From: Rhodothermus sp.
GTDB taxonomy: Bacteria; Bacteroidota; Rhodothermia; Rhodothermales; Rhodothermaceae
NCBI GenBank assembly: GCA_030950375.1
Contig: JAUZRN010000010.1
Location: 62,001 to 126,000 of the forward strand
Reading direction: 5' to 3'
DNA length: 64,000 bases
Position numbers and translations under genes: made by a program. Shown here in pieces: positions 9,779 to 21,034 of this stretch (within the stretch, counting starts at the first letter, position 1; each line of letters opens with the position of its first letter). Below the pieces are notes generated by a model. The model was not told the DNA's origin, made no database searches, and worked only from the letters and a program-made list of their open reading frames with translations.

Positions 9779-11638
9779 ATGAGCAACCAGTACGGTCAAC
9801 ACTCTCCTACACCAAGCCGCGATCTACACGGCCCCCGCACACACACCTGTGGTGAACTGCGACGTACGCACATCGGCCAAGAAGTCGTACTCAAGGGCTG
9901 GGTGGACACGCGACGCGACCTGGGCGGGGTCATTTTTGTCGATCTACGCGATCGCTATGGTCTAACGCAGCTTGTCTTTTCTCCCCAGGACAATGAAGCA
10001 GCCTATCAGCTGGCAGACCGCCTGCGTAGCGAATATGTAATCTCCATCCGCGGAGTAGTACGCGAACGTACCCCGGACACGATCAATCCCAAGCTGGCAA
10101 CTGGCGAAGTTGAAGTTCGCGTCCATGACCTGATTATTCTGAATACCTCCGAGCCACTGCCATTTCCGGTCTCTGCCCACGAGGAAAAGCGTACCGCTGC
10201 CAGCGAAGAGTTGCGCTTGAAGTATCGCTACCTCGACCTACGGCGTCCCGAACTGCAACGAAATCTGTGGCTTCGCCACCAGGTCTACCTGATTACGCGG
10301 CGCTATTTCGACGCCCATCAATTCATTGAGGTCGAAACCCCGGTGTTGACCAAGTCGACACCGGAAGGCGCTCGCGACTTCCTGGTGCCCAGCCGCCTGC
10401 ACCCGGGCAAGTTCTATGCATTGCCCCAGTCGCCACAACTCTATAAACAGATTCTTATGGTGGCTGGACTGGATCGCTATTTCCAGATCGTCAAATGCTT
10501 CCGCGACGAAGATCTGCGCGCCGATCGCCAGCCCGAATTCACTCAGATCGATGTAGAGATGAGCTTTCCTACCGAAGCGCAAATCTTCGAACTTATCGAA
10601 GGGCTCATGCAGGCGATCTGGCAGGAAACGCTGGGGGTCGAACTGACGCGCCCCTTCCCACGCCTTTCCTACGACGAAGCCCTGCGTCGTTTCGGCTCCG
10701 ATAAGCCGGATACTCGTTTTGGACTCGAACTACAGGAAGTCGGGCCCGTCTTTCGCGGCTCTGGCTTCCGCGTCTTCGAAAGTATCCTGGAACAGGGCGG
10801 CACCATTGTAGCCCTGGTCGTGCCAGGCATGGGCGATCAGGGCCGAGGCTACATGGACCGTCTGGATAAAGAGATCGTACGTAAACAAATCGGTGCCAGT
10901 GGGCTGGTTTATTTCAAGCTGCCTTCCGATGGAGGGCCAACCTATGCTTCGGTCAAAGCGCATGTGCTGGCGCCGGAGTATGTCGAACGTGCCGTGGCAG
11001 CGCTCGGTGCTCGCGCGGGCGATCTCGTGCTGTTGCTGGCCGGTCCCAGGCCGCAGGTGTACCTGCAGGCCGGTGCCCTGCGTTTACACATGGCGCGTGA
11101 GCTGAACCTGATCCCACCAGCCGACCGAACCCCCTGGCATTTCCTGTGGGTAACTGATTTTCCGCTGCTGGAATGGGATGAAGAGACCGGACGCTACTAC
11201 GCAATGCATCACCCCTTTACCGCGCCCCATCCGGACGATCTGGACCGACTGGAGACCGAGCCCGACCGCGTACGTGCCCGTGCTTACGATCTGGTGCTCA
11301 ATGGGAATGAGATCGGCGGTGGTTCGATCCGTATCCATCGGCCGGATATCCAGCGCCGCATGTTCCGCATCCTGGGTATCGATGAGACGGAAGCCGAACA
11401 ACGCTTTGGCTTTCTCCTGACCGCCTTCCGTTACGGTGCTCCTCCACATGGTGGGATCGCCCTGGGATTGGATCGCATCGTCATGCTGCTGGCTGGCGCC
11501 GGCTCCCTTCGCGACGTTATCGCATTCCCCAAAACGCAACGTGGACAGGAGCTCATGTCGGACGCACCCGACGAGGTATCACCTGAACAACTTGAAGAGC
11601 TGAACATCCGCGTCGTTCTGCCCGAAACGGAAGCGTAA
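9779..11638 (+). CDS. aspS: Aspartyl-tRNA synthetase
   Basis: Class II bacterial-type AspRS of 619 residues charging tRNA-Asp. The N-terminal OB-fold anticodon domain contains GWVDTRRDLGGVIFVDLRDR. Class II motif 2 begins at about residue 241 (FRDEDLRADRQPEFTQIDVE). A GAD insertion domain occupies about 290-420. Motif 3 lies near 559-587 (GIALGLDRIVMLLAGAGSLRD, then VIAFPKTQ). The C-terminal extension and GAD domain mark the long bacterial form rather than the archaeal or nondiscriminating short form. It begins with a 10-20-residue Pro/His-rich extension before the OB fold. The gene stands alone; no terminator with a T-run was obvious behind it. Confidence 0.97.
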   Translation: MSNQYGQHSPTPSRDLHGPRTHTCGELRRTHIGQEVVLKGWVDTRRDLGGVIFVDLRDRYGLTQLVFSPQDNEAAYQLADRLRSEYVISIRGVVRERTPDTINPKLATGEVEVRVHDLIILNTSEPLPFPVSAHEEKRTAASEELRLKYRYLDLRRPELQRNLWLRHQVYLITRRYFDAHQFIEVETPVLTKSTPEGARDFLVPSRLHPGKFYALPQSPQLYKQILMVAGLDRYFQIVKCFRDEDLRADRQPEFTQIDVEMSFPTEAQIFELIEGLMQAIWQETLGVELTRPFPRLSYDEALRRFGSDKPDTRFGLELQEVGPVFRGSGFRVFESILEQGGTIVALVVPGMGDQGRGYMDRLDKEIVRKQIGASGLVYFKLPSDGGPTYASVKAHVLAPEYVERAVAALGARAGDLVLLLAGPRPQVYLQAGALRLHMARELNLIPPADRTPWHFLWVTDFPLLEWDEETGRYYAMHHPFTAPHPDDLDRLETEPDRVRARAYDLVLNGNEIGGGSIRIHRPDIQRRMFRILGIDETEAEQRFGFLLTAFRYGAPPHGGIALGLDRIVMLLAGAGSLRDVIAFPKTQRGQELMSDAPDEVSPEQLEELNIRVVLPETEA

Positions 11639-11931
11639 GGCTTCCGAGACGACCGAGCGACCTGCTATACCCCCTGCAGCGGACATGCAACCGGGGCGAC
11701 CAGATAAACCGGCACGCTGCTCCCATAGAGATTGCTCCATCCGCAAGAAAGTTTGGTATCACGCCACGGTTCATCCCAAAGGCTATCCACCGAATTCCAT
11801 CCAGATGTCCGCAAAGCGCTTTCACCCGTAAAGAGCGCATAGCAGACTTGCAAAACAGGCGACAACCCGGGATATTTTTCCGTAAAACTTGAACGCTACC
11901 CTCATGTTGCCCACCTGAAATATCAGGGACA
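11639..11931. other. Intergenic, no supported gene
   Basis: This 293-bp gap follows aspS. A minus-strand open frame (11665-11865, 66 codons, TTG start) reads as a Ser/Trp-rich peptide without known motifs or a ribosome binding site. I do not call it a gene. Confidence 0.5.
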
Positions 11932-12345
11932 ATGCGACCTGCTTACAGCAGTGCTTTTCTGGAGTTGTTTGCCCGTCACTTCCGCTGGGAAGCCTGGGAA
12001 CAGCTGATTCGCCAGCGCGGCTGGACCATCGATCGTCCCTATCGAAGCCGCCATCCGCTGTTTGCAGAAGTCATCTACCCGATCGACTACGGCTATGTGA
12101 ACGGCACGCGCAGCAGCGACGGCGAACCCATCGATCTGTTTGTAGGCCACGGCGCTCACGGACTGGTAGGGGCCCTGCTGACCATCGACCGGCGCCGTGG
12201 CAAGCGAGAAGTCAAGCTGCTCTACAATTGTACCGCTGAAGAAGTCTATCTGGTCAACGGATTTATCAACTTCGACCGGCGGCTGCTGGAAGGCTTTCTG
12301 GTGCTACGCTACCCCATGTCGTCCCTGTGGAGCGACGTCGAATGA
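11932..12345 (+). CDS. Short, degenerate family I inorganic pyrophosphatase-like protein
   Basis: The 137-residue protein matches the core of soluble family I inorganic pyrophosphatases. IYPIDYGYVNGT corresponds to the conserved FYPxNYGYI segment, and DGEPIDLFVG to the metal-binding DGDPxDVLV signature, with the middle Asp replaced by Glu. A later LLTIDRRRGKREVKLL aligns with the loop carrying the D-D-K metal/phosphate ligands but keeps only part of them. The C-terminal Tyr-Lys pair and about 40 residues of the usual 175 are missing. It may hydrolyse PPi poorly or act on another phosphoester. The gene converges with speE and their 3' ends overlap by 37 bp. Family placement is from motif reading. 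Confidence 0.72.
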   Translation: MRPAYSSAFLELFARHFRWEAWEQLIRQRGWTIDRPYRSRHPLFAEVIYPIDYGYVNGTRSSDGEPIDLFVGHGAHGLVGALLTIDRRRGKREVKLLYNCTAEEVYLVNGFINFDRRLLEGFLVLRYPMSSLWSDVE

Positions 12346-13238
12346 GCCGGAGGCCCGCCATCAGCAAACAGGCGTCGCACAAAACTGGGTAACGCAAAGG
12401 CAGCCCGGTGCAGCTCGACGTTATAGTAGCGCAGCCGATCCGCAAACGAAGCCAGCCGACGAGCAGCCTGCTCCGGATCGAAATCTACTACCGGATGTAA
12501 CCGCTTGCTGGCCAGCGTGAACGACCAGAGTCCCATTGGATAGGTTGGAATATGGGCCAGGTACATGTGTACCTGAGCAAACATTCGCCCCAGCATTGCA
12601 TGGGCTGCCTGAATGGAGGCCTGAAAGGTATGGTCGAAAGGAGACTCACTCTGGGTCACCAATATCCCTTCATCCGTCAGAATACGGGCACAATCTCGAT
12701 AAAACGATTCCCCAAAGAGTCCCTCGGCGAAATTTACCGGATCGGTTGAGTCGACGATGATCAGATCATACCAGGCATCCGCAGCTCCCTGCACAAAAGC
12801 CACGCCATCAGCTACATGCAGACGAGCCCGCGGATCCTCGAAGGCAACGCTGAGCTCTGGAAAGCACGTACGCGCCGCCTCAATGACGACCTCGTCGATC
12901 TCTACCAGATCCACCTGTTCGATTTCCGCGTAGCGCAACACCTCACGCAACGTGCCCCCATCGCCGCCACCCACAATCAGTACGCGTCGTGGCCGAGGCA
13001 ACAGGCACAGCGCCGGGTGCGCGATCATTTCGTGATAAACAAATTCATCACGCTCGGTGAGCATGACCAGCCCATCGAGCGTAAGGACCCGTCCAAAGGC
13101 ATCGGTCTGCAACACCTGCACATGCTGATAGGCACTCTGACGGTTAAACAGGATGCGCTCGACTCCGAACGTGAGGCCGGTTCGCTCCTGCCAGAATTCC
13201 GTATACTGGAGCTGATGTTGCTTGGGTGCAGCCATCAT
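12309..13238 (-). CDS. speE: Spermidine (polyamine aminopropyl) synthase
   Basis: Transfers the aminopropyl group of decarboxylated AdoMet to a diamine such as putrescine in the cytosol. The N-terminal domain includes WQERTGLTFGVERIL. The Rossmann domain carries the dcAdoMet-binding VLIVGGGDGGTLREVLRY, followed by VDLVEIDEVVIEAA. The catalytic segment is DLIIVDSTDP, with the expected aspartates. Two adjacent ATGs at 13238 and 13235 are the likely starts; the upstream frame to 13307 looks non-coding. It lies about 94 bp downstream of speD on the same strand, giving the two-step polyamine operon speD-speE. Length (about 309) is slightly above typical because of the C-terminus, whose coding end overlaps the convergent pyrophosphatase-like gene. 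Confidence 0.95.
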   Translation of the reverse strand: MMAAPKQHQLQYTEFWQERTGLTFGVERILFNRQSAYQHVQVLQTDAFGRVLTLDGLVMLTERDEFVYHEMIAHPALCLLPRPRRVLIVGGGDGGTLREVLRYAEIEQVDLVEIDEVVIEAARTCFPELSVAFEDPRARLHVADGVAFVQGAADAWYDLIIVDSTDPVNFAEGLFGESFYRDCARILTDEGILVTQSESPFDHTFQASIQAAHAMLGRMFAQVHMYLAHIPTYPMGLWSFTLASKRLHPVVDFDPEQAARRLASFADRLRYYNVELHRAAFALPSFVRRLFADGGPPAHSTSLHRDDMG

Positions 13239-13331
13239 ACTTCTGCAATATAAAAGGAAAGCGGCATGATGCACTTCCTGGCTGGAAGCTACACCATGCC
13301 GCTGCACTTTCCGAAGGAAGACCGCATCAAT

Positions 13332-13727
13332 TCAGGCGGCGGCTGCCTCCTCAAGCACGGGCTTATGGGGCACCCGCTCCGGGAAAAGTCCCCGCTTAAG
13401 CTCCATGCTCGAGACACTCCGTGCCCTAAACCGCTCCTCCAGGTACTTCTGAATGACCCAGGGATCAATGGTCTCGCCGCATGTAAAAATGTCGACGGCC
13501 GCATAGCCATGCTCCGGCCAGGTATGGATGGCTACATGCGACTCAGCAATAACTACGACGCCACTGACGCCGTGGGGACTAAACGAGTGAAACGTGTCGG
13601 TGATGACGGTGGCACGGGACCGACGAGCGCCCTCAATCAAGATTTCCCGGATCAGGGCCTCGTTGTTGAGCACCTCTCGGTCGCAGTCATAGAACTCGAC
13701 CAAGATCTGCCTTCCGAGTGCTTCCAT
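13332..13727 (-). CDS. speD: S-adenosylmethionine decarboxylase proenzyme (class 1B)
   Basis: Pyruvoyl enzyme that makes decarboxylated AdoMet for polyamine synthesis. The self-cleavage site is visible as AESHVAIHTWPE: cleavage between Glu62 and Ser63 creates the pyruvoyl group. His68 and Cys83 (FTCG) occupy the positions of the known processing and catalytic residues, and the numbering equals that of the small Thermotoga-type enzyme. The 131 residues fit the bacterial class 1B form. The start is secured by AGGAGG five to seven bases upstream, one of the best Shine-Dalgarno sequences in the window. It leads speE. The long upstream region holds stable hairpins that could be a regulatory leader. 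Confidence 0.96.
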   Translation of the reverse strand: MEALGRQILVEFYDCDREVLNNEALIREILIEGARRSRATVITDTFHSFSPHGVSGVVVIAESHVAIHTWPEHGYAAVDIFTCGETIDPWVIQKYLEERFRARSVSSMELKRGLFPERVPHKPVLEEAAAA

Positions 13728-13834
13728 TGGCTACCCTCCTTTTGTTTTGCACCCCCCGTCTGCCACAAACGGGGAAACATTGTATGGTGAACAATTAATG
13801 CCCCCATTCGGAGGCACCCCATACAACCGCAGTC

Positions 13835-13916
13835 CTGGTGAGCGAAGGGTAGGAGGACGCCGGAAGACGTTAGGCCACGCTACAGACGCGTCCTCTTTCG
13901 CTTACAAACTCACCAG
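13835..13916. other. Nested long hairpin upstream of speD, possible structured leader RNA
   Basis: CTGGTGAG (13835-13842) pairs perfectly with CTCACCAG (13909-13916). Inside it, GAGGACGC (13853-13860) pairs perfectly with GCGTCCTC (13888-13895). A short GCGAA/TTCGC pairing between them is also possible. The fold lies about 108 bp upstream of the speD start and could be read on either strand. Which strand is transcribed is unknown. Confidence 0.45.
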
Positions 13917-13928
13917 CCGCTAGCGCAT

Positions 13929-13962
13929 CACGAGTCCATCCTGAATTACAGGATGTCTCGTG
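13929..13962. repeat. Thirteen-base-pair hairpin
   Basis: CACGAG (13929-13934) plus CATCCTG (13937-13943) pair with CAGGATG (13949-13955) plus CTCGTG (13957-13962), with only a TC/T bulge. On the plus strand it is followed by an A-run rather than a T-run, so it is not a standard terminator. Confidence 0.5.
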
Positions 13963-14650
13963 AAAAAACGCATTCAAAGAACGCGGGCATTGCGGTTCAG
14001 GATTGTACCTGGTGGCAGCAGGCCTTTTCCCGAAGGAGACTCCACAGTACCAAAACTAAGCAGCAGAACGATGTTTGTAAAACCCGGTTTTCTCCGACTT
14101 TATTTTTTCACAAATCCCCTCCTTACCGGGGGGCCAATGAACGAGCCCCCTGCCCCAGGGTTCCATTTAGAAAGCGCTTGTCTCCCTCACCAGGCCGGGC
14201 TTTTAATAGTTTTTTACGATGTGATCCGCCCTCTCAATCAGATCTGCTCGAAACTCTTCTGACAACTGAGCGTTGCTCGTTCCAAACTGAACATTGACGA
14301 GCCCAACGGCAGTCCTTATCTTTCATTCTGTGCAGGTTTAACCACCACGTGCTATGACGCATCGGCCAACCACACCGGCAGCGTGGTACTTTGGGCCTTT
14401 CCAGACCACGGCCATGCTACAGGTGGCGGGTCGATGTCGTTGTATGTGTTGATCGCCTTTCTGGCTGTTCCGGTCTACGAGCGCACGCCTACCATCTAAG
14501 TTGTAAGGGCGACAAGTAGCCCTACTGCATTCAGGCAGTGCTCCTGTGTCTCGCAGACCGGCGGTTGTGAGGGCTTGCTATCTCCTGCTGTCCCCGATCG
14601 TAACCAGTGTTTTTGTCCGCTTCCCTTGTTCACCAAAGCCTGGTCGCGCT

Positions 14651-16582
14651 ATGTCTGGCTCAAGAACTTTTGTCCGCTACGGCCGACGCACCCAGGAACT
14701 CACCTGGGAACTGGTACTCAAGCGCAACAGCATTGAGCGCCTCAAACAGGAGCGTCCTCCGCTGCGCGTTATCGAAGAGCTACCGGAGCTGATTGCACGC
14801 GGCTACGAAGCGATTCCTGAAGAAGATATTGTCCGCCTGTACTGGTACGGCATTGCGCACGACAAGCCCAAAGTGGGCACGTTCATGGTGCGCATCAAGG
14901 TACCGGGTGGCTTACTTCGACCAGATCAACTTCGGGCCATCGGTGAGATTGCCGGGCGTTACGGCCGCGATTACGGCGAGCTGACCACACGCCAGGGCAT
15001 TCAGCTCCACTGGGTAGCCATGGAAAAACTGCCCGAAGTACTGGAAGCCATCGCTCAGGCTGGACTGACCACCGTGGGTGCCGAAGGCGATACAGTACGG
15101 AATATTACCAGCTGCCCGGTCAACGGGATTAATCCAGACGAGTTGTTTGACGTCCGCCCGGTCATTGAAGCAGCCGCTCGCTTTTTCTGGGGGAACCCCG
15201 ACTATTCCAACCTGCCTCGTAAGCACAAATTCACGATCAGCAGCTGCCCCCATCAGTGCAACGCTCCGGAAATTCACGACATCGCACTCATCGGCGTCTT
15301 GAAGGACAGACGGCCGGGCTTTGCTGTCAGGGTAGGCGGTGGCCTGTCGGCCACCCCACGTCTGGCCCGTGATCTGGGGGTGTTTGTACCGGTAGACGAA
15401 GCCGTTGAAGTGCTGGCCGCCATTACCGATGTCTGGCAACACAACCTGCGCTACCGTCTGAGCCGCGCCAAGTCGCGCATCAAATTCCTGGTAGACGACT
15501 ACGGTCCAGAAGGCGTACGCGAAATGGTTGAGGCACGGTTGGGACGCCGACTGGAAGACTTTCGGGCACCTGATCCTGTACCAGGCGGCAATCATCTGGG
15601 CATTCATCGGCAGAAACAGGAAGGCTTCTACTATGCAGGTTTTCCAGTGCCCTCAGGGCGGGTAACCGGCACGCAGCTGCGCCAGATCGCCGACCTTCTG
15701 GAAGCTGTCGGTGGCGACATCCGCTTTACACGTGAGCAGAACTTCATTCTGGGCAACATTCCGGAAGACCGACTCGCCTGGGTACTCAATCAGATGCGGG
15801 CCGTGGGCTTCCCTATCGAACGTCACCGACTCTACGGCAGCTCGACAGCCTGCACCAGCCACCAGTTCTGCAACTACTCCGTTGCTGAAACCAAGGAAAA
15901 GCTCGACGAAATCATCGCTGAACTGGAAGCCCATTACGGTGAGGAGATCCAGCAGCTGACCATTTACATGGATGGCTGCCCACACGCCTGCGCTCATCAC
16001 TGGGTAGGCGACATCGGGTTGCAGGGCACGCGCACAGCCGGTCCCGATGGTACCAAAGTTGAAGCTTACGACGTGACACTACGGGGGGGGCTGGGCCGGC
16101 ATGCTGCCATCGGTCGTCCCATTCTGCGCCGCATCCCTTCTGCAGAAATCAGCCAGGCAATCGTCCGGCTGGTAGGCGCCTGGCTACAGGAGCGCCGCCG
16201 CCTGGGTGATCACTACACGTTTCAGGCCTTCTGCGAAGCCCACACGAATGAAGAGCTGCAGGCCATTGCACTGGGCGAAGTCTCGGCCAAAGAAGTAGAA
16301 GCAACCGAGGTGGTGCGCATTCGCATTCCTGGTCCCCTGCTGGAGTTGACCGAGGGCAGCGACCTCATTGAGGTCAAGGCCCCGACTGTGCGCATTGCGC
16401 TGGAGCAGGCCGGCCGCCGCTATCCCCACTTAAAAGCGACCGTGCTCACTCCTGACGGCCAGCTCAGCGAAGCCTTTAACCTCTATGTGAACGAAGAGGA
16501 CATCCAAGGCCTGCAGGGGCTCGACACCCCACTTAAGCCAGGTGACGAGCTGCTCATCCTCATGGCAATGTCCGGTGGTTAA
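14651..16582 (+). CDS. Siroheme sulfite/nitrite reductase fused to a ThiS/MoaD-like sulfur carrier
   Basis: A 643-residue assimilatory reductase that should reduce sulfite (less likely nitrite) by six electrons in the cytosol. The ferredoxin-type half-domains are followed by the siroheme/[4Fe-4S] ligands: CTSHQFC (Cys401, Cys407) and GCPHAC (Cys443, Cys447). An earlier TSCPVNG and SSCPHQCNAPE are the conserved anion-site segments. After about residue 550 there is an extra domain of about 90 residues with a beta-grasp pattern, ending LILMAMSGG. The C-terminal Gly-Gly is what ThiS and MoaD sulfur carriers use to carry thiocarboxylate. I chose the ATG at 14651; the open frame upstream to 14546 is not reductase-like. 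cysH starts 26 bp downstream. The pairing suggests that sulfide made here is loaded onto the fused carrier, which is inference. Confidence 0.9.
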   Translation: MSGSRTFVRYGRRTQELTWELVLKRNSIERLKQERPPLRVIEELPELIARGYEAIPEEDIVRLYWYGIAHDKPKVGTFMVRIKVPGGLLRPDQLRAIGEIAGRYGRDYGELTTRQGIQLHWVAMEKLPEVLEAIAQAGLTTVGAEGDTVRNITSCPVNGINPDELFDVRPVIEAAARFFWGNPDYSNLPRKHKFTISSCPHQCNAPEIHDIALIGVLKDRRPGFAVRVGGGLSATPRLARDLGVFVPVDEAVEVLAAITDVWQHNLRYRLSRAKSRIKFLVDDYGPEGVREMVEARLGRRLEDFRAPDPVPGGNHLGIHRQKQEGFYYAGFPVPSGRVTGTQLRQIADLLEAVGGDIRFTREQNFILGNIPEDRLAWVLNQMRAVGFPIERHRLYGSSTACTSHQFCNYSVAETKEKLDEIIAELEAHYGEEIQQLTIYMDGCPHACAHHWVGDIGLQGTRTAGPDGTKVEAYDVTLRGGLGRHAAIGRPILRRIPSAEISQAIVRLVGAWLQERRRLGDHYTFQAFCEAHTNEELQAIALGEVSAKEVEATEVVRIRIPGPLLELTEGSDLIEVKAPTVRIALEQAGRRYPHLKATVLTPDGQLSEAFNLYVNEEDIQGLQGLDTPLKPGDELLILMAMSGG

Positions 16583-16608
16583 GTCGTTCACTCAACCCGT
16601 ATGTGACC

Positions 16609-17415
16609 ATGGCACGCCAACCGCTGTTTGACGATCTGGAAATCGGTGAAATCGCGCTGCAACTGGACGACCAGGAGCCCGAAGACGTGATTGCCTGGGC
16701 ACTGGAAACTTTCGATGAAGATCGTATCGCCATCGTTACAGCGCTTCAGGCCGACGGCATGGTGATCCTGGACATGGCCTACCGGATGAAACCCAACATC
16801 CGGGTGATCACCATTGACACGGGACGTCTCCCCCAGGCCACCTACGACTTCTACGAACAGGTACGCGCGCGCTATCCAGAAGCACGCTTCGAGGCACGCT
16901 TTCCCGACTATCGGGAGGTAGAAGAAATGGTGCGCCGCCACGGCATCAACCTGTTTTATCGGTCAGTACCTCTGCGCCTGCTCTGCTGCCACGTGCGTAA
17001 AGTACGGCCACTCATTCGTGCACTGAACCAGCTCGATGCCTGGTTTACCGGCCTGCGCCGCGACCAGTGGGCCTCACGGGCTGCCATCCGTAAAGTGGAG
17101 ATCGACCACGACCACGACGGCGTGATCAAGATCAACCCCCTGGCCGACTGGACCAAGGAAGACGTGTGGGCCTACATCGAAGCATGCGACGTGCCCATAC
17201 ATCCACTTTACGCGGAAGGCTACACAAGCATTGGCTGTGCCCCCTGCACCCGTCCAATCCAACCCGGCGAAGACGACCGCGCCGGCCGCTGGTGGTGGGA
17301 GACAAACGCACCCAAAGAATGTGGCATTCACTGCCCCATCGAAACGGGCGGTTTTGAGCACGAGATGGAAGCCATCATCGGGCACGGATCACCCAAAAAC
17401 AACCATACCTCCTGA
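16609..17415 (+). CDS. cysH: Adenylylsulfate (APS) reductase, Fe-S type
   Basis: Thioredoxin-dependent reduction of APS to sulfite and AMP, the step just before the upstream sulfite reductase. The PP-loop-type nucleotide fold includes VITIDTGRLPQATYDF (66-81). Two cysteine pairs, CC at 126-127 (LLCCHVRKV) and CAPC at 210-213, are the [4Fe-4S] ligands that separate APS reductases from E. coli-type PAPS reductase. The catalytic cysteine is Cys238 in KECGIH. The ATG at 16609 is preferred to a GTG two codons earlier. The C-terminal tail beyond the catalytic Cys is about 30 residues. It is tightly spaced with the reductase before it and an unknown gene after it, so these form one sulfate-assimilation operon. 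No sulfurylase gene lies in the window. Confidence 0.95.
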   Translation: MARQPLFDDLEIGEIALQLDDQEPEDVIAWALETFDEDRIAIVTALQADGMVILDMAYRMKPNIRVITIDTGRLPQATYDFYEQVRARYPEARFEARFPDYREVEEMVRRHGINLFYRSVPLRLLCCHVRKVRPLIRALNQLDAWFTGLRRDQWASRAAIRKVEIDHDHDGVIKINPLADWTKEDVWAYIEACDVPIHPLYAEGYTSIGCAPCTRPIQPGEDDRAGRWWWETNAPKECGIHCPIETGGFEHEMEAIIGHGSPKNNHTS

Positions 17416-17428
17416 ATTCAAAACGATC

Positions 17429-17884
17429 ATGCCGTTGACCATTCCCGAAGAAGCCCGGGAGCCGCTGGTGCAGGAACTGACAAGTTTTGCTGCCTCAATG
17501 CCAGACCCGGAAACCCGCCATCTGTACCAGCGGCTCCTGGAAGCCGTCACTGCAGGCACAGTAGATGCGTCGCTGGACGAACCACTGGGACGCTTCCTGG
17601 AGGTGGCCCTCCAGACCGGACGCATCCGACAGCAACACGGCCCTCACGAAGAAAAAGCCTTACGGGCGCTGTATCACCAGACGCAACGCGGACGCCAGAT
17701 TCTGGCCGCCGTCCAACAGGCTAACAAGGCACTCCGTGCTCTCCAGGGGCACACACTCCGTGAACTGACCTTTACCCCCCTGAATCCTGGTACTTACCGC
17801 CTCACCCTTGGTACCGATCAGGTGCGTCTAACCCTGGAAATCAACGCGCAGGGCGTCTGGGTCGAGAACCTGGTCGTGGGATAA
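17429..17884 (+). CDS. Unknown protein encoded in the sulfur-assimilation operon
   Basis: A 151-residue protein with no signal peptide or transmembrane segment. The first 115 residues are predicted helical and rich in Arg/Gln/Leu. The last 45 (from LRELTFTPLNPGTYRL) look like short beta strands. It contains no cysteine, which argues against redox or Fe-S chemistry. The start ATG lies 13 bp after the cysH stop, so co-transcription with the reductase and cysH is very likely. A role in the same pathway, such as partner or scaffold for the fused sulfur carrier, is inferred from position only. No family was recognised. Confidence 0.7.
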   Translation: MPLTIPEEAREPLVQELTSFAASMPDPETRHLYQRLLEAVTAGTVDASLDEPLGRFLEVALQTGRIRQQHGPHEEKALRALYHQTQRGRQILAAVQQANKALRALQGHTLRELTFTPLNPGTYRLTLGTDQVRLTLEINAQGVWVENLVVG

Positions 17885-18818
17885 ACATGCAGGCATTCCT
17901 TACATACAAATCACGACCGTAGCTCCAAAACCAGACGTGAGCTGAGCGAGCAAACTCATGAGACCGTACGCCTGCCCCGTGACGGCATGGATTCTCCTGC
18001 CCAGATCGACGTCTTTCTGGTTGCCCAACAGGCCGGAGAGAAACGGCCGACGAAAACAGAGGCTCGGGCCTCAAGCCATCTGTGCAGGCTGCCCGCCCAT
18101 CCGGCCACAGTTACTGAACCTGCCGCCCCCAGACATGCTCCGCGGTAGCGAAATGTGCAGTTCGGGCTATTGCGCTGAGCGCAGCCGGTCAGCCTGCCGT
18201 ACTCTCTGGAACGTACAACGCACCCCGAAATAGAGCGTCACGCCGACCGACCAGGCACCAGCTCGAAATGCCGGGCACGAGTCAACATGCCCACGCTTTG
18301 ATCCACCTGGCATGTGCTGCCTGTGGGCAGCAGCTTAAGCTACACGCAGCGCTCAATACGACAGCTTCCCAATAGGAGGCAGCTCCTTGCCATTACAAGT
18401 ACCTGCATCGAAGGCGGTTGGTTGTCCACCAATGCTGCCCGGTAGGTGGCCGGCACAGGACATCGAAGGAGCTATTGCATACCAGCTCGCATGCGCCTGT
18501 AGCTGGTAGACGAAACAGCTGCCCCGCGCTATCAAAACCCTGCCAGGAGCTTTACCGGAACAGACGGAACTGACGTATCACTCCGCCTGCTGTTCTTCAC
18601 GCCACAATCGCCCGAAGTGTTTGGAGAGTCAGCCTCCCCGTTGGTATCCTATCCTGCCAGCAGCTGATGCGCTGCTTCGCCTGAGCAGCGCGACCGACTG
18701 CGTTGCTGGAACGCTGGCGTATCTCCTACTTGCTATCAGAAAGACGCTCCAACCATTCCGCTACAGGCTGGAAGCCGCGCATTCTCTGAACGCCATCTTT
18801 TTGATGGGCTCATTACCC
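17885..18818. other. Gene-poor stretch with traces of decayed coding sequence
   Basis: These 934 bp at normal GC carry no convincing intact gene on either strand, which is rare in this compact segment. Short open frames occur, but none has a good start and known motifs. One minus-strand piece (18167-18313) reads like the end of an outer-membrane barrel and is listed separately. The stretch looks like a deteriorating gene region. Confidence 0.55.
18167..18313 (-). pseudogene. Possible remnant of an outer-membrane beta-barrel gene
   Basis: A 48-codon frame contains GAWSVGVTLYFGVRC, which resembles the last membrane strand of many Bacteroidota outer-membrane proteins. It is followed by a charged tail and a stop. 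Nothing upstream on the strand continues the barrel in a single frame. This is a weak call from one motif-like phrase. Confidence 0.25.
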
Positions 18819-19382
18819 TTACCCTTCAGCCACCACCTGGCGACAGAAGGACAGGATCAGCCGCAGGTGCACATGCAACATGGGCACGAGCTTCAGGCGC
18901 TCCATCCGTTCCTGCGGAAGCTCTGGCAGGCCCGGTGGGCTGATGCGTCCCATCCATAACGCCATCTTTTCTCGCAGCATCTGTTCTCCTGGAAACTGAC
19001 CGGCCGGCAAATGTGCCTCATAAAAAGCCTGCTTTCGCTGAAGTCGCTCATATATCTCACGACCTGCTTCCTCCAACCACGTCACCTCCTTCTGACTCAG
19101 CAACAGACCGCCCAGTAGATAGTCGCGGTAGGTAAACGGTAATGCCATAAGCGCCGGCGGCACTGCCCGGACCAAGGCTGGCTTCTCCCGTAAACCCACT
19201 TCGGCAGCACGCGCCGTGGCTGTAGCGGCCAGACAAAGTGTTTCTTCAGCCACCAGCTCCGGATCGGCCATCTCCACCGCTTCAAGAACACGACCGATGA
19301 GGTCCTGCACAACGCTCAATACGCCGGTCGTAGCAAAGACCGCTACACGTACCGCCTGTTCTGAAGCATCCATCAGGTTCAT
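18819..19382 (-). CDS. Unknown soluble protein, mostly helical
   Basis: A 187-residue protein without signal peptide, membrane segment or recognised motif. It is Leu/Glu/Ala-rich and predicted largely helical, with an early segment AVRVAVFATTGVLSVVQDLIG and a basic/Met-containing end. The codon pattern and the length of the frame support a real gene. An in-frame ATG at 19373 is an alternative start. It is transcribed divergently from the response regulator at 19469, with 86 bp between, and could share control with that polysaccharide cluster. Function is unknown. Confidence 0.65.
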   Translation of the reverse strand: MNLMDASEQAVRVAVFATTGVLSVVQDLIGRVLEAVEMADPELVAEETLCLAATATARAAEVGLREKPALVRAVPPALMALPFTYRDYLLGGLLLSQKEVTWLEEAGREIYERLQRKQAFYEAHLPAGQFPGEQMLREKMALWMGRISPPGLPELPQERMERLKLVPMLHVHLRLILSFCRQVVAEG

Positions 19383-19468
19383 CGGTAACGTTTATGGATT
19401 TCTGGACCTGGAGCGGTACATACTTTGCTGCGCCTCTTCGGTGCCCTGTGACCTGCCTTCATGTAGTA

Positions 19469-21034
19469 ATGTCCGCTTTACAACCTGCCGCCCAAGAAGA
19501 GCTCGCCGCACTCCTGGACAGCCTGGAAATTGCGCTGCTGAACCTGGAAAACGGATCACCACAGGCAACCGTGACCGGTCTGCGCCTGCTGGTACGTGCT
19601 GCACAACTGTTAGGGTCTTTTACCCACCTACCTGAAGTCCAACGGCTGCAGCAGGAAATTCAGCACTTAATTGCACAGCCAGAGACGCTTCATCCCCAGC
19701 ATGTACGGCAGGCTCTTCAAGAAGCGCATCAGGTACTGGAAGCGCTGGCCCAACAGCTACCAGGCCTCCAGGTTCGCCTTCTGATTGTGGAGCCCGATGA
19801 TGGTCTGGCCGATCTGCTTACCACCATGCTACAAACAGCTTACCGCGATATTAGCGTGGTACACACCGCGGACGAGGCCAAACAATTTCTGGAGAAAACA
19901 CCAGTCCACCTGATCATCACCGAACTGCTTTTGCCTGATCTGGACGGGCGTTCGCTGCTCCTCTGGATTCGGCGTCATCCGCCTACCGCCCAGACACCGA
20001 TACTCATCCTATCAGACCGTATCTCTTCAGCTGTAAAGGCCGAATGCTATGCATTAGGCGCCGATGATGTACTGGAAAAGCCATTCGATCCGGCCGAAGT
20101 GTCACTGGTGGTGGCCTCGATGCTTCAGCGGGCCATGGTACGCCATCCGGGGGATCCCCTTACGGGACTGCCCGGTCGCGCTTATCTGGAAGAGACCTTC
20201 GCCCGCCTTGTACAGCTGCACCGACAGACCGGGTCCCCTTTCTGTGTGGCCTGCATTGAGCTGGATAATCTGACAGCGCTCAATCAACGCTATGGGCAAC
20301 ACGTAAGCGACGAGGTGATCCGTCAGACAGCCTGGCAGCTGGTCCGCATGCTTCGCGCCGGGGACATCCTGGGTCGTTGGGACACTGATACCTTCTGCAT
20401 CCTGCTACCCGACGCCTCAGAAACGCAGGCACGTATGCTCCTGGAACAGGCTTTAGAAGCACTCCAGACCGAACCTATGCTGGTGGACACCAATGCACCA
20501 CCGGTTTCATTCTCGGCCTGCATCGTGCCTATCGGGCAGACTGCGCCTCCTTCGCTGGCAACTTTGATCCAGCAAGCCCAGCAATGTCTCAAAAAGGGAG
20601 ATAAAGGCGGAAAAATTTACTCGTTGCGGGCAAACATTGACACCCAACCTCACATCCTGCTGGTAGAAGATGATCCAGCCATTGCTACCCTGATTCAGAT
20701 CCGGCTACAACGAGATGGGTACAAGGTAACTCACTTTGCCAACGGACGCGAAGCGGCCGAATGGGCCCAGACGCACATCGCCGACCTGGTTATTCTGGAC
20801 GTCAAGTTGCCCGGTATGGATGGGTTTGAACTGCTGGCCCATCTTCGTCAACTCCCCTCCTATTCCGCCGTGCCGATTATGATGCTGACCAGCTTGAGTC
20901 AGGAGCAGCATATTGTGCGAGGATTCGAGCTGGGGGCCGACGATTACATCGTCAAGCCTTTTTCGCCGGTGGAATTAAGCGCCCGTGTGCGCCGCCTGTT
21001 GCAACGTCAAGCACCGCAATTGGCCGTCGTTTAA
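19469..21034 (+). CDS. Response regulator: REC (no Asp) - degenerate GGDEF - REC
   Basis: A 521-residue cytoplasmic regulator. Residues 1-100 are helical and resemble an HPt or docking region. REC1 (about 103-219) keeps the acidic pair (Asp110/111) and Lys204 but has Glu152 where the phosphoacceptor Asp should be (IITELLLPDLDG). The GGDEF fold runs about 229-385, starting DPLTGLPGR. Its signature reads GRWDTDTF (302-309) instead of GGDEF, so cyclic-di-GMP synthesis is not expected. REC2 (about 394-514) has a normal Asp444 (LVILDVKLPGMDG) and Lys497. I chose the ATG at 19469 rather than 19394. It leads a HEAT-repeat protein, a GT2 and a YaiO barrel, so it probably controls polysaccharide production, perhaps by binding rather than making a nucleotide. 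Confidence 0.88.
   Translation: MSALQPAAQEELAALLDSLEIALLNLENGSPQATVTGLRLLVRAAQLLGSFTHLPEVQRLQQEIQHLIAQPETLHPQHVRQALQEAHQVLEALAQQLPGLQVRLLIVEPDDGLADLLTTMLQTAYRDISVVHTADEAKQFLEKTPVHLIITELLLPDLDGRSLLLWIRRHPPTAQTPILILSDRISSAVKAECYALGADDVLEKPFDPAEVSLVVASMLQRAMVRHPGDPLTGLPGRAYLEETFARLVQLHRQTGSPFCVACIELDNLTALNQRYGQHVSDEVIRQTAWQLVRMLRAGDILGRWDTDTFCILLPDASETQARMLLEQALEALQTEPMLVDTNAPPVSFSACIVPIGQTAPPSLATLIQQAQQCLKKGDKGGKIYSLRANIDTQPHILLVEDDPAIATLIQIRLQRDGYKVTHFANGREAAEWAQTHIADLVILDVKLPGMDGFELLAHLRQLPSYSAVPIMMLTSLSQEQHIVRGFELGADDYIVKPFSPVELSARVRRLLQRQAPQLAVV

What the first reader, a model, noticed from the sequence alone, without database searches (positions are those of the whole stretch)
14651..17884. 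Sulfite reductase with a built-in ThiS/MoaD-like sulfur carrier
The siroheme reductase has its complete Fe-S/siroheme ligand set (Cys401/407/443/447). About 90 extra C-terminal residues follow with a beta-grasp pattern and end in Gly-Gly, as sulfur carriers do. Because the Gly-Gly is already the C-terminus, no protease is needed. In one operon with APS reductase, sulfide made at the active site could be handed in cis to the carrier as a thiocarboxylate, instead of being released and caught by cysteine synthase. Links between ThiS-like proteins and sulfur-assimilation genes are known in general; the fusion and its consequence here are inference.
Basis: partly seen in the sequence, partly recalled or inferred. 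Interest (0 to 1): 0.75.

Follow-up and report, generated by a model that had tools for sequence, protein, structure and literature searches.

The report
Sulfite reductase carrying its sulfur carrier
A heat-loving bacterium has joined the enzyme that makes sulfide to a small ubiquitin-like protein that normally carries sulfur for making cysteine; this kind of fusion was first noted in 2006 and the link is conserved across several bacterial phyla, but I found no report of anyone testing what it does.

Summary
Window 14651-16582 (+) encodes a 643-aa NirA/SirA-type sulfite reductase with an intact Cys401/407/443/447 set and a C-terminal CysO-like beta-grasp domain (557-643) ending in Gly-Gly. Pfam, PDB sequence search and fold search agree; CysO is the closest fold (TM 0.89-0.90). 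The genome is a Rhodothermus. The architecture is not new: Iyer et al. 2006 reported ThiS fused to the C-terminus of sulfite reductase in two actinobacteria and proposed sulfur hand-over to such carriers.

Added here: the fusion occurs in 26 of about 1,380 genomes searched, from five phyla. It forms one clade (support 100), so it arose once and Rhodothermus probably acquired it laterally. Gly-Gly is invariant in all 25 fusions aligned; 20 end there. The domain is under purifying selection. This genome has one sulfite reductase, one E1 (MoeZ-type) and one fold-type II cysteine synthase; the last two sit in a cysM-JAB-cysO-moeZ cluster on another contig. Best reading: the E1 activates the tethered carrier, sulfide from the reductase charges it, CysM uses the thiocarboxylate for cysteine, and JAB releases the product. 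Charging in cis is untested, and a protease is probably still needed.

The parts
14651..16582 (+). sir-cysO fusion gene: NirA/SirA-type sulfite reductase (residues about 20-540) + flexible linker (about 541-554) + CysO-like carrier domain (557-643)
16319..16579 (+). CysO/ThiS-family beta-grasp domain, codons 557-643, ending Gly642-Gly643
   Evidence: PF02597 44.6 bits; PDB 4n6e, 3dwg by sequence; Foldseek 4n6e TMt 0.90, 3dwm TMt 0.89
16574..16579 (+). codons of the terminal Gly-Gly (carrier tail), followed directly by TAA
   Evidence: invariant in 25 of 25 fusions
16609..17415 (+). cysH, APS reductase (thioredoxin type), second gene of the operon
   Evidence: synteny in fused and unfused relatives
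17429..17884 (+). conserved 151-aa protein of unknown function, third gene of the operon; N-terminal part of a CysC fusion in Armatimonadota and Acidobacteriota
   Evidence: no Pfam, NCBIfam or PDB fold match

Best explanation
The protein is an assimilatory ferredoxin-type sulfite reductase with a CysO-like sulfur-carrier protein permanently tethered to its C-terminus. Proposed cycle: (1) the cell's single E1, a MoeZ-type adenylyltransferase with a rhodanese domain, adenylates Gly643. (2) The acyl-adenylate is converted to a Gly-Gly thiocarboxylate by sulfide that the siroheme domain makes from sulfite, delivered at high local concentration by the tether. (3) The flexible linker and tail let the thiocarboxylate enter the active site of CysM, as CysO does in Mycobacterium. 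(4) The JAB protease hydrolyses the carrier-cysteine adduct, releasing cysteine and restoring Gly-Gly. Shown here: domain identity, tail conservation, purifying selection, single origin, and the partner genes in the genome. Inferred from the Mycobacterium CysO pathway: steps 1, 3 and 4. Inferred only from the fusion and the operon: step 2.
For: Domain: Pfam ThiS, CysO and SAMP1 as nearest PDB sequences and folds. GG invariant in 25 of 25 fusions and 10 of 91 domain columns invariant; Rhodothermus dN/dS 0.05-0.11 for the domain, 0.03-0.06 for the reductase. One fused clade, support 100. Sulfite rather than nitrite type: LPRKxK in 43 of 43 relatives against LPRKxN in the cyanobacterial and two Bacteroidota outgroups (the meaning of the position is from knowledge of the tobacco NiR N226K work), plus the APS reductase operon. 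Own genome: one E1, one strong Prok-JAB, one fold-type II cysteine synthase (the other five PALP hits read as threonine dehydratase, two threonine synthases and two TrpB), all in a cysM-JAB-cysO-E1 cluster; no other sulfite reductase. Most other fusion genomes carry a cysO-cysM pair, often with JAB or E1. Pathway chemistry from PMC3227635.
Against: The operon itself has no E1, JAB or cysM; they lie on another contig. The same cluster already has its own standalone CysO, so the tethered domain may be redundant or serve another acceptor. The E1 has a rhodanese domain, so a persulfide, not free sulfide, may be the sulfur donor. Two MetY-type enzymes could use sulfide or the carrier for homocysteine. 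The unfused sister Sir lineages keep the same sir-cysH-151aa operon without a carrier nearby, so the carrier is not essential to this operon. No model coordinates were available to measure whether the tail can reach the siroheme site.
Confidence: 0.55

Rival explanations
1. Docking rather than carrying: the CysO-like domain tethers the sulfite reductase to CysM or the E1 so that released sulfide is channelled, while the standalone CysO does the covalent sulfur transfer.
For: A standalone CysO exists in the same cluster as CysM, JAB and E1; the sulfite reductase would gain proximity without any chemistry at its own tail.
Against: A pure docking domain has no need for an exact Gly-Gly end; GG is invariant in 25 of 25 while the linker and much of the domain vary.
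Confidence: 0.2
2. The tethered carrier feeds homocysteine (MetY) or another acceptor, as HcyS does in Wolinella, rather than cysteine.
For: Two MetY-type enzymes in the genome. In Wolinella, sulfide made by a sulfite reductase is loaded on a carrier used by MetY (recalled from the literature, not read here).
Against: Neither MetY gene lies near a carrier, JAB or E1 within the fetched stretches; the domain is CysO-like by sequence and fold and the only E1 and JAB sit beside CysM.
Confidence: 0.15
3. The domain works as a protein modifier (SAMP-like conjugation, or auto-conjugation that regulates the reductase), not as a sulfur carrier.
For: Weak SAMP1 similarity (38.2 bits, below the 60-bit cut-off); SAMP1 folds match; the JAB resembles archaeal desampylase.
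Against: Sulfite reductase and APS reductase operon context; CysO closer than SAMP1 in sequence and fold.
Confidence: 0.07
4. An evolutionary passenger: a functionless remnant of a gene fusion.
For: The fused clade is rare and unfused sister lineages manage without it.
Against: Single old origin with GG and eight other columns invariant across five phyla, and low dN/dS.
Confidence: 0.03

Closest known systems
ThiS fused to the C-terminus of sulfite reductase in Nocardioides and Acidothermus (Iyer, Burroughs and Aravind 2006, PMC1779556)
   Same: Same domain order and, as far as described, the same architecture; the same authors proposed that assimilated sulfur ends on the ThiS/MoaD-like protein.
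   Different: Here in Rhodothermus and, by this survey, also in Chloroflexota, Acidobacteriota and Armatimonadota. Their class of operon includes SirA/TusA and a rhodanese-free E1 in the neighbourhood; Rhodothermus has no TusA and its E1 has a rhodanese domain and lies elsewhere. I could not fetch the two named proteins to test common descent.
Mycobacterium tuberculosis CysO-CysM-Mec+-MoeZ cysteine pathway
   Same: Carrier fold (3dwm, TMt 0.89), Ala-x-x-Gly-Gly tail, CysM, JAB and MoeZ-type E1 all present in the genome.
   Different: Carrier domain is fused to the sulfite reductase; a second, standalone CysO with extra C-terminal residues (GGHF) is also present.
M. tuberculosis NirA/SirA (1zj8), ferredoxin-dependent sulfite reductase
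   Same: Closest solved structure by sequence and fold, same Fe-S/siroheme cysteines.
   Different: The match to 1zj8 stops at residue 519: it lacks the carrier domain.
Wolinella succinogenes HcyS/HcyD/HcyF/MetY/Sir pathway (from memory)
   Same: Sulfite reductase supplies sulfide to an E1-activated carrier.
   Different: There the proteins are separate and the carrier ends in an extra alanine; here fused and ending in GG.

Membership tests
CysO-like beta-grasp sulfur carriers (ThiS family, PF02597) | Beta-grasp fold of the ThiS/MoaD/CysO type | tested here: met
   PF02597 44.6 bits over cut-off 22.5; Foldseek 4n6e TMt 0.90, 3dwm TMt 0.89, rmsd 1.5; domain pLDDT 84-91
CysO-like beta-grasp sulfur carriers (ThiS family, PF02597) | C-terminal Gly-Gly, conserved | tested here: met
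   GG invariant in 25 of 25 fusions; 20 end there, 5 carry two more residues
CysO-like beta-grasp sulfur carriers (ThiS family, PF02597) | An E1-type activating enzyme in the genome | tested here: met
   One ThiF-family E1 in the whole genome, C4:2712-3416
CysO-like beta-grasp sulfur carriers (ThiS family, PF02597) | Forms a C-terminal thiocarboxylate and donates sulfur | not testable with these tools
   Needs biochemistry
Ferredoxin-type assimilatory sulfite reductase (NirA/SirA) | Four cysteines binding the Fe-S cluster coupled to siroheme | tested here: met
   Cys401, 407, 443, 447 invariant
Ferredoxin-type assimilatory sulfite reductase (NirA/SirA) | Sulfite-type active-site Lys (LPRKxK) rather than nitrite-type Asn | tested here: met
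   LPRKHK here; LPRKxK in 43 of 43 relatives
Ferredoxin-type assimilatory sulfite reductase (NirA/SirA) | Reduces sulfite in vitro, ferredoxin as donor | not testable with these tools
   Needs biochemistry
Iyer 2006 class 4e sulfur-assimilation operons | ThiS/MoaD-like protein, JAB and rhodanese-free E1 in the same operon | tested here: not met
   Operon holds only sir-cysO, cysH and the 151-aa gene; the E1 (with rhodanese) and JAB are on contig C4
Iyer 2006 class 4e sulfur-assimilation operons | SirA/TusA gene present | tested here: not met
   No TusA in three Rhodothermus genomes
Iyer 2006 class 4e sulfur-assimilation operons | ThiS fused to the C-terminus of sulfite reductase (actinobacterial subset) | tested here: met

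The most novel reading that the evidence does not exclude
The sulfite reductase charges its own tethered, E1-activated carrier in cis, so that sulfide is never released: a sulfur-assimilation enzyme whose product leaves as a protein-bound thiocarboxylate handed straight to cysteine synthase.
Probability: 0.3. Interest if true: 0.7.

Novelty: new member of a known kind. Interest (0 to 1): 0.36.

Why it matters
If the tethered carrier is really charged by the reductase, toxic and volatile sulfide need never be free in the cell, and it would answer where the sulfur of CysO-type cysteine synthesis comes from, which the mycobacterial work left open. Rhodothermus is a clean test case: one sulfite reductase, one E1, one fold-type II cysteine synthase, and Rhodothermus marinus is cultivated. 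The fusion itself, however, has been in the literature since 2006.

Tried and rejected
Considered and rejected: that the GG end is chance (invariant in 25 of 25); that the domain is ThiS or MoaD proper (CysO and SAMP1 are closer); that Sir is a nitrite reductase (LPRKxK, APS reductase operon); that the fusion replaced an adjacent carrier gene (no carrier found near unfused relatives); several independent fusions of this type (one clade; one separate fusion with a different carrier in G1382/L109). Led nowhere: Rfam search of 11500-20000; fold search of the 151-aa protein; Pfam on five members of it; the tree of the carrier domains alone is poorly resolved. The geometry of tail and siroheme site could not be measured: no model coordinates were given.

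Full report
What is there. The ORF 14651-16582 (+) gives a 643-aa protein. Pfam finds two NIR_SIR and two NIR_SIR_ferr half-domains and a ThiS domain at 557-643 that reaches the last residue. The closest solved structure for the reductase is M. tuberculosis NirA, 1zj8. The C-terminal domain matches PDB 4n6e (CysO of Amycolatopsis), 1v8c and 3dwg (CysO of M. tuberculosis) by sequence. In the AlphaFold2 model (domain pLDDT 84-91, linker 544-552 and last three residues below 50) it superposes on CysO with TM 0.89-0.90. So the domain is CysO-like, not ThiS or MoaD proper.

Surroundings. Downstream follow an APS reductase (26-base gap) and a 151-aa protein of unknown function (13-base gap). Relatives from genome collections keep the order sir, cysH, 151-aa gene, both in fused and in unfused forms of the reductase; in Armatimonadota and some Acidobacteriota the 151-aa protein is fused to the N-terminus of APS kinase CysC.

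Distribution and descent. Nearest relatives are Rhodothermus MAGs, so the window is from Rhodothermus or a very close genus. Five same-genus genomes including this one carry the fusion and none of the other 291 genomes drawn from the phylum does. Counts of full-length fusions: 10 of 396 in the phylum of L010 (titled Actinobacteria), 2 of 350 in that of L008 (Chloroflexota), 4 of 297 in that of L009 (Pyrinomonas, Acidobacteriota), 5 of 43 in that of L012 (Armatimonadota). Phylum names come from record titles of MAGs. On a tree of the reductase domain alone the 25 fused rows form one clade (SH-aLRT 100), inside a larger family of unfused reductases; Rhodothermus is sister to the Chloroflexota sequence, which suggests lateral acquisition. 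One further genome (G1382, L109) has a separate fusion with a different ThiS-type domain and a long tail after GG.

Is the carrier maintained? Gly642 and Gly643 are invariant in 25 of 25 fusions; besides them Pro560, Gly561, Gly569, Pro592, Glu615, Leu621, Gly631 and Ala639 are invariant, while the linker varies in length and sequence. Twenty end at GG; five end in GG plus two residues (GC, AC, GA, AV, AR). Between Rhodothermus genomes dN/dS is 0.05-0.11 for the domain and 0.03-0.06 for the reductase. This is what a working carrier tail would show.

Partners in the genome. The genome (99.6% complete) has five ThiS-family genes: this fusion, a ThiS, a MoaD next to MoaE, a standalone CysO and one other. 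It has one ThiF-family E1, of the MoeZ type with a rhodanese domain that keeps its active-site motif CRSGAR, so the same E1 must serve all carriers, as MoeZR serves several carriers in mycobacteria (PMC3227635). It has one strong Prok-JAB. Of six PALP proteins only one is a cysteine synthase; the others read as threonine dehydratase, two threonine synthases and two TrpB (two of these by NCBIfam; the rest by inspection of their sequences and neighbours). The cysteine synthase, the JAB, the standalone CysO (ending GGHF) and the E1 form one cluster on contig C4. Other fusion genomes mostly have a cysO-cysM pair, often with JAB or E1 beside it. Some other Bacteroidota even have CysO fused to the E1 (L200). 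There is no second sulfite reductase in the genome. Two MetY-type enzymes are present.

Mechanism. In mycobacteria MoeZR forms the CysO thiocarboxylate, CysM adds O-phosphoserine to make a CysO-cysteine adduct, and the Mec+ protease releases cysteine (PMC3227635). With all these parts present, the tethered domain most likely enters the same cycle, with the reductase supplying the sulfur. The step that is only inferred is that sulfide from the siroheme attacks the E1-made acyl-adenylate in cis. Against it, the E1's rhodanese domain suggests a persulfide donor.

What is known. [quoted passage not shown] Full-text searches found no experimental study of the fusion; subscription papers are not held, so this is not proof of absence. 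From memory, Wolinella HcyS is charged with sulfide from a sulfite reductase in trans. The present case is therefore a new member of a known kind, with a wider distribution and a particularly clean genomic setting.

Noticed in passing
17429-17884 (+): Third gene of the operon: a conserved family of about 150 aa (helical N-terminus, four-stranded C-terminus, pLDDT 92.5) that follows sir-cysH in five phyla and is fused to CysC in some, yet has no Pfam, NCBIfam or PDB-fold match.
   Followed up: partly
L109:1073-2932: An independent second fusion: a related sulfite reductase with a different ThiS-type domain whose GG is followed by SGGEVICREWA.
   Followed up: partly
L200:718-2229: In another Bacteroidota family CysO is fused to the N-terminus of a MoeZ-type E1 with rhodanese domain (503 aa).
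   Followed up: partly
L005:1498-1764: A further ubiquitin-like protein in this genome ending PQAGG, beside an acetamidase/formamidase-like gene; function unknown.
   Followed up: no
L145:2346-2642 and L036-L040: The standalone CysO of Rhodothermus has variable residues after GG (HF, RL, KSR, GL), so unlike the fused domain it needs trimming before use.
   Followed up: partly
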